The notes under the pieces were generated by a model that was given only the letters and a program-made list of their open reading frames with translations, searched no databases and was not told the origin of the DNA. From Candidatus Gastranaerophilales bacterium (GTDB lineage Bacteria > Cyanobacteriota > Vampirovibrionia > Gastranaerophilales > Gastranaerophilaceae), in contig CANQJT010000001.1 in the NCBI GenBank assembly GCA_947624325.1, forward strand, positions 248,001-312,000: a stretch of DNA of 64,000 nt. Direction: 5' to 3'. Below are positions 44,735 to 47,516 of the stretch, piece by piece. Made by a program: the position numbers and the translations under genes. The first letter of the stretch is position 1; every line of letters starts with the position of its first letter.

Positions 44735-44768
44735 AAAAAGAGAGGAATTATTTTCCTCTCTTTTTATT
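44735..44768. terminator. Bidirectional terminator
   Basis: AAAGAGAGGAA-TTATT-TTCCTCTCTTT with A- and T-runs on both sides, serving the coiled-coil gene (plus) and tRNA-Val (minus). Confidence 0.88.
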
Positions 44769-44769
44769 A

Positions 44770-44845
44770 TGGTGGGCGGTACTGGACTCGAACCAGCGAC
44801 CTCCACAATGTCAATGTGATGCGCTACCATCTGCGCCAACCGCCC
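44770..44845 (-). tRNA. tRNA-Val (GAC)
   Basis: 76 nt with encoded CCA. Acceptor GGGCGGT, D-arm GCGCAGATGGTAGCGC, anticodon loop TTGACAT giving GAC, T-arm GGTTCGAGTCC. The 5' end borders a tandem array of partial copies of this same tRNA. Confidence 0.97.
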
Positions 44846-45200
44846 ATATTAAGTTTTCAATGTAATGCTACCTCTCAAAAAACGATACTTAATCGTTTTT
44901 TTCGGCAGAGTCATCTGCGCCAACCGCCCATATTAAGTTTTCAATGTGATGCTACCTCTCAAAAAACGATACTTAATCGTTTTTTTCGGCAGAGTCATCT
45001 GCGCCAACCGCCCATATTAAGTTTTCAATGTGATGCTACCTCTCAAAAAACGATACTTAATCGTTTTTTTCGGCAGAGTCATCTGCGCCAACCGCCCATA
45101 TAAAATTTTCAATGTGATGCTACCTCTCAAAAAACGATACTTAATCGTTTTTTTCGGCAGAGTCATCTGCGCCAACCGCCCGTATTAAATTTTCAATGTG
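44846..45200 (-). repeat. Tandem 84-bp array of tRNA-Val 5' halves with hairpins (4 units)
   Basis: The string CTGCGCCAACCGCCC recurs at 44831 (in the tRNA), 44915, 44999, 45083 and 45167, an exact 84-bp period. Read on the minus strand, each unit holds the tRNA 5' part (GGGCGGTTGGCGCAGATG), then about 40 nt with a perfect hairpin (AAAAAACGAT/ATCGTTTTTT), then GGTAGC-ATCACATTGA, matching the tRNA D-arm to anticodon stem with a 2-nt deletion. The 3' half of the tRNA is absent. Units differ at only a few positions. 45201-45338 holds nothing further that I recognise. Confidence 0.92.
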
Positions 45201-45338
45201 TTGTTATTTTACTATGTTAAAACTTTTTATTCAAGTTTAATATTTTAAGAAATATTAAATTAAAAAATTTTTTAAGCACTTTTTTACTTAGCTTTTTGTT
45301 ATTTAGCATATAAAAAATAGAAAAAGTAAGGATAAAAA

Positions 45339-47516
45339 ATGAATATTACAAATTCTCACATTAATCACGAAAACACTTATATTAAAATGCAGCCTTTTTG
45401 TGGCAAAATATTTAGCAAAAGCAATAATATTGACGATACTTTTGAGAACAAGAATAAAACAAATCCCAAACAACATAAAGTAAGAAGTTTTTTTAATAAA
45501 TTTAAAGGTGTTATTATAGCAGGAATTTCATCTGTAATTACTGCATTATCAGTCATTTTTATTATGGATAAAAAAAATAAGCAAATAGTTGAAGCTAATA
45601 AAAATTTAAAAAATGAACTAAACAATACTTTATTAATTAATGAAAATTTAAAAAAAGAATTAAATAATATAGTATTACCTAAAGATTTTGAAAGTACAAT
45701 TGATGAGAAAGCAGAAGAAATTTTTGCTAAAAGTTTGGAATATGACCCATTAACACCTTATGAAAGTACATCAATATCTGATATAGAAAGCAAAAAAATA
45801 AAACCCGTAACAGTTGAAATGTCAAAAGAGCCGGAACATACATCAAATAGAGCCGATGCTCATAAATTAGATTATCCTAAATTCAAACCTAATACATATT
45901 ATAAATTTGAATTCCCCGACAGCAAAGAAATAAAAATCACTAAAACAGAACCCGTTGGATTTGAAGAACAGAGCCAGCTTACAAATATATCAGAAAATTA
46001 TGCAAACTCATTACAATGGAATAATGATAAAATTGCAAGAGATATACTTCAAAATTTCTTTGACGGTCACGGTCAAACACTCGACGGAGTAAAAATAGAA
46101 ATTATACCTGAAAAGAACGGAAAACATAAAGTAAAAATATCTGGCAAATCAACTTATAATTTTGATAAAGCAATAATGCTCGGTGAAACAACCAAAAAAG
46201 ATAATGTTCATGCGGCAGGCAACTATGGTGAAGGACTAAAAATGGTTGTGCTTAAACTTTTAAAAGAAAAAGGTGCCGAAAATGTTAATATTGCCTCAAA
46301 TAATTGGAATGTAAAATGGAATTTAGTTGATAACAATATTAATGACAACAAAGTTCTTAAGTACACACTTTCTAAATCTGACTTTATTGACGGAAATTAT
46401 TTAGAATTTGAAACAGATAATTTAGAGTTTATAAAGTCAATTTTAAATTCATATGACAGATTTTATCATTACAATAATCCTGCATTTAAAGAACCTGAGT
46501 TTGAAAATGATATAATTGGAATAAAATTTATGAAAAATCCAAAAGAAAAAGGAAAAATATTTATTGCAGGACAAGCATTTGAAGTCAGTCAAGATACTTT
46601 GGGTGGTAAAAATAGTTCAACATACGACGGAATAAACGGACTTAATATATTTATTAAAGAAAGACCGCCAAAAGAAAGCCATGGTTCAGTAATATTTGAT
46701 ACTTCAAGAGATCGTATTGCATTAAACTATAAAAATATTCAAACATTAGGTAAATGGCTTGCGGAAAATGATAATTTATCTGATGAAGATTTTACCAAGC
46801 TGCTTAATGCTCTTCACCCATGCTGGGAAAGCGGTAAAAATGCAATATGGAGTAACAATTATACTGAAGCGGTATTCTTTCTTAACGGATTATTAGATCA
46901 TTATTGTAATAGAAGCAGAAGATTAAATATCATTTTCCCAAATGAAAAAGAAATTGCATATTCGTATTTGTGTTCAAGCTGGAGCGATTTATATGAAAAT
47001 GCCGGCTATAAAATGTGCAATCCCGGTTTAAATCAATATGGGATGAACTCTATTGAAGAACTTATTGCTGAATCAAAAGCTCATAACGCAATAAAGCCAA
47101 GCATTAAAGAAGAAAAGAAAATTAAGATTTTGAAAGAAGCTATAAAAATTTTATCTCCCGTATTAAAAGAAAATAACTTCTTTACAGATGATGAACTTAA
47201 TGCCAAGATATATCTGTTTGATAATACGGCAACTAATGAAAACAGAGCATATAATACAGTTCAAGGGGAATCAATAACATCTAATGGTGAATGTAAAGGG
47301 TTCTGGATTGATACGAATACATTAGATGAAAAGAATTTTTCAGAACTGTTAAGTATATGTCTGCATGAATTAACTCATAAATACGGCTCTGATGACAGTG
47401 ATGTATTCTCATACAAATTAACTGATGTAATTGAAATGTTAACAAAGGCAATGACTAAAAATCCGAATTTAGCATTACAATTGAAAGCATTGGAAGAAAT
47501 TTGGAATAAAATATAA
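45339..47516 (+). CDS. Membrane-anchored GHKL-type ATPase/HExxH metallopeptidase fusion
   Basis: 725 aa, unknown family. Residues 1-56 are polar, 57-76 form one membrane helix, 80-125 a Lys/Asn-rich coiled coil. About 215-400 shows GHKL-ATPase features: N-box-like ARDILQNFFDGHG (Asn239, Asp235 where Glu is usual), LGETTK, and the ATP-lid AGNYGEGLKMVVLKLL (about 293-308). The C-terminus has a zinc-peptidase motif HELTH (676-680) in CLHELTHKYGSDDSDVFSY, with acidic residues downstream as possible third ligand. The ATPase is of the MutL/Hsp90 style rather than a histidine kinase; no DHp domain. Function unknown. Confidence 0.72.
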   Translation: MNITNSHINHENTYIKMQPFCGKIFSKSNNIDDTFENKNKTNPKQHKVRSFFNKFKGVIIAGISSVITALSVIFIMDKKNKQIVEANKNLKNELNNTLLINENLKKELNNIVLPKDFESTIDEKAEEIFAKSLEYDPLTPYESTSISDIESKKIKPVTVEMSKEPEHTSNRADAHKLDYPKFKPNTYYKFEFPDSKEIKITKTEPVGFEEQSQLTNISENYANSLQWNNDKIARDILQNFFDGHGQTLDGVKIEIIPEKNGKHKVKISGKSTYNFDKAIMLGETTKKDNVHAAGNYGEGLKMVVLKLLKEKGAENVNIASNNWNVKWNLVDNNINDNKVLKYTLSKSDFIDGNYLEFETDNLEFIKSILNSYDRFYHYNNPAFKEPEFENDIIGIKFMKNPKEKGKIFIAGQAFEVSQDTLGGKNSSTYDGINGLNIFIKERPPKESHGSVIFDTSRDRIALNYKNIQTLGKWLAENDNLSDEDFTKLLNALHPCWESGKNAIWSNNYTEAVFFLNGLLDHYCNRSRRLNIIFPNEKEIAYSYLCSSWSDLYENAGYKMCNPGLNQYGMNSIEELIAESKAHNAIKPSIKEEKKIKILKEAIKILSPVLKENNFFTDDELNAKIYLFDNTATNENRAYNTVQGESITSNGECKGFWIDTNTLDEKNFSELLSICLHELTHKYGSDDSDVFSYKLTDVIEMLTKAMTKNPNLALQLKALEEIWNKI

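What the first reader, a model, noticed from the sequence alone, without database searches (positions are those of the whole stretch)
44770..45200. Tandem array of tRNA-Val 5' halves, each carrying a terminator-like hairpin
Upstream of an intact tRNA-Val(GAC) lie four 84-bp units with an exact period. Each is a tRNA 5' half with a hairpin insertion (AAAAAACGAT/ATCGTTTTTT) in the D-arm region and no 3' half. If transcribed towards the tRNA, each unit could give a short RNA starting like the tRNA and ending at a U-rich hairpin: GGGCGGTTGGCGCAGATG plus a small stem-loop. This is not a tRNA duplication, a CRISPR or an ordinary satellite. It could be decoy RNAs, a transcription brake on the tRNA, or a recombination by-product.
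Basis: partly seen in the sequence, partly recalled or inferred. Interest (0 to 1): 0.8.

Follow-up and report, generated by a model that had tools for sequence, protein, structure and literature searches.

The report
Mobile hairpins nested in tRNA half-copies
The four repeats beside this valine tRNA gene are partial tRNA copies, each carrying one copy of a roughly 43-bp hairpin that is scattered through the genomes of nearly all its gut-bacterial relatives; it looks like an undescribed miniature mobile element that settles in tRNA and 5S rRNA genes, not a terminator or decoy RNA.

Summary
The array is real: four 84-bp units (44846-45181, minus strand) between the predicted promoter and intact tRNA-Val(GAC). 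The hairpin is not local. It is one copy of a dispersed element, here called E: ACTCTGCCGA + variable self-complementary stem-loop + GAGAGG(TA). The own genome holds 20 copies, nearly all in partial copies of tRNA genes (Val, Pro, Leu, Thr, fMet, Phe) or a duplicate 5S gene. E occurs in 346 of 383 genomes of the order Gastranaerophilales (reversed-pattern control 0), with up to 84 copies. Elsewhere in the phylum hits are at control level. The stem covaries strongly. E takes the place of about 5 nt starting with G-N-A (28 of 30 target types), and the intact gene lies downstream in E's reading direction in 81 of 83 cases. At tRNA-Val(GAC), relatives carry 0 to 4 exact units. Many E copies have no U-tract, and E stands antisense at gene 3' ends, so terminator and decoy readings do not fit the family. 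Best reading: a non-autonomous mobile palindrome (comparable to RPE, YPAL or REPIN) in partial tRNA copies, amplified locally as near-neutral satellites. The mobilising enzyme is unknown; Y1/RAYT transposases were not supported. New variant of a known kind.

The parts
44770..44845 (-). intact tRNA-Val(GAC)
   Evidence: ARAGORN; Rfam RF00005 65.7 bits
44846..44929 (-). unit 1 (nearest the intact gene): tRNA-Val 5' part (44912-44929), element E (44871-44911), TA, resumed tRNA piece and leader copy (44846-44868)
   Evidence: sequence
44930..45013 (-). unit 2: tRNA part 44996-45013, E 44955-44995, spacer 44930-44954
45014..45097 (-). unit 3: tRNA part 45080-45097, E 45039-45079, spacer 45014-45038
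45098..45181 (-). unit 4: tRNA part 45164-45181, E 45123-45163, spacer 45098-45122
44871..44911 (-). element E, copy 1: ACTCTGCCGA-AAAAAACGAT-TAAGT-ATCGTTTTTT-GAGAGG (the family's TA end adds two bases)
   Evidence: family; covariation
44955..44995 (-). element E, copy 2
45039..45079 (-). element E, copy 3
45123..45163 (-). element E, copy 4
45206..45234 (-). promoter-like TTGAAT-17-TAAAAT upstream of the array; the array would lie in the transcribed leader of tRNA-Val (inferred)
   Evidence: 4 promoter-like sites found, 3.1 expected, so weak on its own; a similar TTGAAT/TAAAAT site stands at the same place in L327 and promoter-like sites lie close upstream of the tRNA in loci without E
44735..44765 (-). 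perfect 13-bp inverted repeat with T-rich end downstream of tRNA-Val: likely terminator (not part of the element)
   Evidence: pair I7; not called by the scan

Best explanation
Each unit is a partial copy of the tRNA-Val gene (leader plus first 18 nt) into which a miniature palindromic element, E, has been inserted. E is a roughly 43-bp dispersed element of the order Gastranaerophilales with fixed ends (ACTCTGCCGA...GAGAGGTA) and a fast-evolving but always self-complementary stem-loop. Shown: its dispersal, its covarying stem, its strong preference for tRNA and 5S gene sequence in this genus, replacement of about 5 target nt beginning G-N-A, and the fixed polarity (intact gene downstream of E's 3' end). 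Inferred: E is non-autonomous and is moved in trans by an enzyme acting on hairpin DNA (or its RNA copy). The target's end is probably extended into E, and synthesis then jumps back upstream, so that leader and gene are copied again and an intact gene survives next to the element. Also inferred: the finished 84-bp unit later multiplied by slippage or unequal exchange. The array is best seen as a by-product, lying in the tRNA leader, with no demonstrated role.
For: Own genome: 20 E copies, reversed-pattern control 0; 17 of 19 testable contexts sit in tRNA or 5S gene sequence against 18% of control 12-mers, and by eye the other two resemble fMet and Arg genes. Genus: 77% against 16%; 38 of 41 genomes have E. 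Order: 346 of 383 genomes. Rest of phylum: sporadic hits without hairpins, about as many as in the control. Stem: 93.7% of cells paired against 75.7% shuffled, 8 of 10 pairs changed on both sides, covariation 0.499 against 0.150, 0 of 500 shuffles. Target: nt lost minus nt added is 3 in 36 of 47 resolvable junctions, typically 5 nt lost when E ends GAGAGGTA; 28 of 30 target types start G-N-A, at most 9 of 30 at shifted positions. Polarity: 81 of 83. Presence/absence and copy-number polymorphism at the same tRNA-Val locus: 0, 1, 2 or 4 exact units. E also replaces about 5 nt inside unrelated palindromic repeats of other genera and lies in frame in a gene resembling a DNA cytosine methyltransferase.
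Against: No mobilising enzyme identified. Y1 transposases (PF01797) are absent from the own genome at E<=1e-3 and are not commoner in E-rich genomes of the genus, and where present they are flanked by a different REP. No movement was observed, only site polymorphism between species. The polarity could partly reflect selection for an intact, expressed tRNA rather than mechanism; insertions outside tRNA genes show no local duplication, so duplication and insertion may be separate events. About half of the E copies have no nearby empty copy, so the target rule rests on the readable half.
Confidence: 0.8

Rival explanations
1. Functional leader: the units are transcribed before the tRNA and act as attenuator, decoy half-tRNAs or RNase P competitors that tune tRNA-Val supply.
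For: A promoter-like site lies upstream of the array, so units are probably transcribed; E stems are under structural constraint.
Against: The family lies antisense at 3' ends and inside unrelated repeats; most relatives have no array at this locus; U-tracts are not conserved and no terminator is called; no Rfam match other than the intact tRNA.
Confidence: 0.1
2. E is a structural DNA site (protein-binding, replication or transcription insulator) kept at tRNA genes by selection, not a mobile element.
For: Fixed ends and covarying stem across the order; concentration at tRNA and 5S genes in this genus.
Against: Sporadic by species at one locus; in other genera many copies lie in other repeats; placement in coding sequence; consistent 5-nt substitution signature.
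Confidence: 0.12
3. Scar of integrase-driven elements using the tRNA gene as attachment site.
For: tRNA fragments are a known by-product of integrative elements (PMC9897764).
Against: The same ~43-bp hairpin sits at many different genes with no cargo; no recombinase is evident among the ORFs read at 39-51.5 kb; the fragments here are mostly 5' pieces carrying one shared insert.
Confidence: 0.03
4. Assembly artefact in a repeat.
For: 84-bp repeats are hard for short reads; in relatives E arrays often sit at contig ends.
Against: Units carry substitutions, the array is internal to a 500-kb contig, and similar arrays occur independently in other species and at other tRNA genes.
Confidence: 0.02

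Closest known systems
Rickettsia palindromic elements (RPE)
   Same: Dispersed palindromes without genes, found in frame in protein genes and in RNA genes (tmRNA and M1 RNA; review PMC2229807); no target-site duplication established; mobiliser unknown.
   Different: RPE are 105-146 bp; E is about 43 bp with fixed ends and a free stem, replaces about 5 nt at G-N-A, and favours tRNA and 5S genes with a partial copy beside an intact one.
YPAL/RU-2 of Yersinia
   Same: Palindromic; targets span or adjoin dyad symmetry (PMC2229807).
   Different: 168 bp, makes target-site duplications of 3-26 bp; E shows target loss.
REP/REPIN with RAYT (Y1) transposases
   Same: Short hairpins at high copy, some in tandem arrays, thought to spread in trans (PMC3116915).
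   Different: RAYT genes in this order carry their own REP (GTAGGTTGGG...CCCAAC), not E; the own genome has 20 E but no Y1 hit.
tRNA gene fragments left by integrative elements
   Same: A partial copy next to an intact tRNA gene.
   Different: Known cases bracket about 9-23 kb of foreign DNA (PMC9897764); here there is no cargo and the shared hairpin lies inside the fragment.
Small dispersed repeats (SDR) of Nostoc
   Same: Very short dispersed repeats nested in other repeats, in the same phylum (recalled from memory; only a citation to SDRs was seen, in PMC3116915).
   Different: Not compared at sequence level here.

Membership tests
REP/REPIN (RAYT-mobilised) | cognate RAYT/Y1 gene flanked by the same repeat | tested here: not met
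   RAYT flanks carry a GTAG-type REP unlike E; no Y1 hit in the own genome; Y1 presence not linked to E number within the genus. 4 of 20 Y1 loci have an intact E nearby; at one of them the Y1 element itself sits inside a further E hairpin
REP/REPIN (RAYT-mobilised) | GTAG at the hairpin foot, inverted doublets | tested here: inconclusive
   GAGAGGTAG follows the hairpin in many copies, but copies occur singly or in direct tandem
RPE-like palindromic element | dispersed palindrome, tolerated in frame in coding sequence and in RNA genes | tested here: met
RPE proper | 105-146 bp element of Rickettsia, by sequence and size | tested here: not met
   E is about 43 bp and was found only in Gastranaerophilales among the genomes searched (Rickettsia not searched); size of RPE from PMC2229807
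Classical MITE | terminal inverted repeats and target-site duplication | tested here: not met
   junctions show net loss of target, typically 5 nt replaced, not duplication
Intrinsic terminator | GC-rich stem followed by a U-tract | tested here: not met
CRISPR array | conserved repeat with unique spacers | tested here: not met
   whole 84-bp unit is repeated
Known structured RNA (Rfam) | match to a covariance model | tested here: not met
   only the intact tRNA reaches its gathering score

The most novel reading that the evidence does not exclude
A previously unrecognised insertion process in Gastranaerophilales writes a short hairpin into G-N-A sites of structured RNA genes (possibly by target-primed synthesis) and in the same event re-copies the gene's end, so that an intact gene is left next to the inserted element.
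Probability: 0.35. Interest if true: 0.85.

Novelty: new variant of a known kind. Interest (0 to 1): 0.66.

Why it matters
Many gut Gastranaerophilales genomes appear to carry an abundant mini-element whose target rule (G-N-A, 5 nt replaced, fixed polarity towards an intact RNA gene) fits no insertion mechanism known to me. The large catalogue of filled and empty sites makes the mechanism testable, and it explains an oddity that would otherwise be read as tRNA regulation. The arrays also tend to break short-read assemblies and could mislead tRNA annotation.

Tried and rejected
Terminator/attenuator: rejected on family-wide sequence variation and orientation. RAYT/REP membership: Y1 genes sought in 383 genomes and 20 loci read; their flanks carry another REP. 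Integrase scar: no cargo, no recombinase evident nearby. Rfam: nothing beyond the tRNA. Viral contigs: the loose pattern is expected to give chance matches at that collection size; not used. Genome-contig scan: my pattern was one base too short, so only rare 39-nt variants could match; used solely for the organism name. A first tRNA-library classification was flawed by leader bases and line wrapping and was replaced. Literature searches found no description of this element, but subscription journals are mostly not covered.

Full report
Observation. On the minus strand the order is: promoter-like site TTGAAT-17-TAAAAT (45234-45206), four units of 84 bp (45181 down to 44846), intact tRNA-Val(GAC) 44845-44770, then a perfect inverted repeat with a T-rich end. 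Each unit reads GGGCGGTTGGCGCAGATG + ACTCTGCCGAAAAAAACGATTAAGTATCGTTTTTTGAGAGG + TA + GCATCACATTGA (GCATTACATTGA in one unit) + a leader of the type AAACTTAATAT. The first and fourth parts are the tRNA gene itself (GGGCGGTTGGCGCAGATG|GTAGC|GCATCACATTGACATTG...), so the middle replaces GTAGC. TRF scores 711; the element has 0 expected matches in the window against 4 found.

A dispersed element. The hairpin recurs elsewhere in the same genome: blastn and a gapped pattern give 20 copies, with none for the reversed pattern. They sit in partial copies of tRNA-Val, Phe, Leu(GAG), Leu(CAG), Pro(CGG), Pro(TGG), Pro(GGG), Thr(GGT), a broken fMet, an Arg-like fragment and a second 5S rRNA gene. In the genus 38 of 41 genomes have it, in the order 346 of 383, with up to 84 copies. 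Outside the order hits lack a hairpin and are about as frequent as in the control. The matching genome contigs record is titled Candidatus Gastranaerophilales.

Structure. Ends are fixed by the search pattern; the inside varies but stays complementary: in 27 distinct 40-mers 93.7% of cells pair against 75.7% in shuffles, 8 of 10 pairs show changes on both sides, covariation 0.499 against 0.150. Lengths are mostly 38, 40, 42 or 44, as if whole base pairs come and go; one subtype keeps tandem G-A/A-G mismatches. Stems such as CGAGGAGGTGACTAAATGTCACGTCCGAG have no U-run, so termination is not the conserved property.

Insertion signature. Comparing filled copies with the neighbouring empty copy, nt lost minus nt added after GAGAGG is 3 in 36 of 47 resolvable junctions, most often 5 lost and TA added. 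The replaced bases begin G-N-A in 28 of 30 target types, against at most 9 of 30 at shifted positions; one of the two exceptions is a diverged E rather than a true empty site. In genera g3 and g14 the element replaces about 5 nt inside unrelated palindromic repeats, and it can lie in frame in a coding sequence resembling a DNA cytosine methyltransferase.

Polarity and partial copies. In tRNA targets the intact gene lies downstream in E's reading direction in 81 of 83 cases (70 sense at the 5' side, 11 antisense at the 3' side; 2 exceptions). After E most units carry a short resumed piece of the gene, often followed by a small inverted copy closed by a GTA-type loop, then the leader. This is what synthesis running from the target into E and then jumping back upstream would leave; selection for an intact tRNA could add to the bias. 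Both are inference.

Dynamics. At the tRNA-Val(GAC) locus, of 29 relatives' loci fetched, most have no exact E; the others have 1 or 2 (a few with a mismatch), two show what look like decayed remnants (L305, L306), and the window's genome has 4. A further relative has at least 4 Val units at a contig end (L052). In loci without E a promoter-like sequence sits close upstream of the tRNA, so units extend the leader. Units within an array are near-identical, which points to local slippage or unequal exchange after insertion.

Mobiliser. Y1 transposases were tested because REP/RAYT is the best-known system of this type. They occur in 124 of 383 genomes but not in this one. Within the genus, genomes with Y1 average 3.9 E copies and those without 4.8 (my tally). 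Their flanks carry a different hairpin repeat. Four of 20 Y1 loci do have an intact E nearby; at one of them the Y1 element is inserted inside a further E stem-loop, so the association may reflect a shared taste for palindromes. No other enzyme class was tested.

Conclusion. Membership of RPE proper, MITE, REPIN or terminator fails on at least one tested feature each; it works most like an RPE-type palindrome with a new insertion rule.

Noticed in passing
L296 (G122:C7): A Y1/RAYT element with GTAGGTTGGG REPs is inserted inside the loop of an E hairpin in a tRNA-Phe 3' partial copy: palindrome nested in palindrome.
   Followed up: partly
L281-L300: RAYT genes of Gastranaerophilales are flanked by their own REP family (GTAGGTTGGGcatacctGCCCAAC and variants).
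   Followed up: partly
L002/L030 (G000:C19): A second, E-disrupted 5S rRNA gene lies next to the intact one; the same occurs in L055 and L215.
   Followed up: no
L003/L018 (G000:C2:224150-224290): Truncated initiator tRNA-fMet with two E units and no intact gene close by in the own genome.
   Followed up: no
L010 (G000:C7): Another palindromic repeat (acaaattttgcgtagg...) occupies a further tRNA-Pro(TGG) partial copy: more than one palindromic family seems to use tRNA 5' parts.
   Followed up: no
L186, L212: Long intergenic palindromic repeats (atttccgtag...gagaggaaat), some holding E.
   Followed up: no
window 45596-45677: 42-bp in-phase tandem repeat (2 copies) near the start of the ORF 45339-47516.
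   Followed up: no
L022 (G000:C6:13823-13988): Two Leu(CAG) units with nearly identical flanks carry different E stems, suggesting stem exchange between E copies.
   Followed up: no
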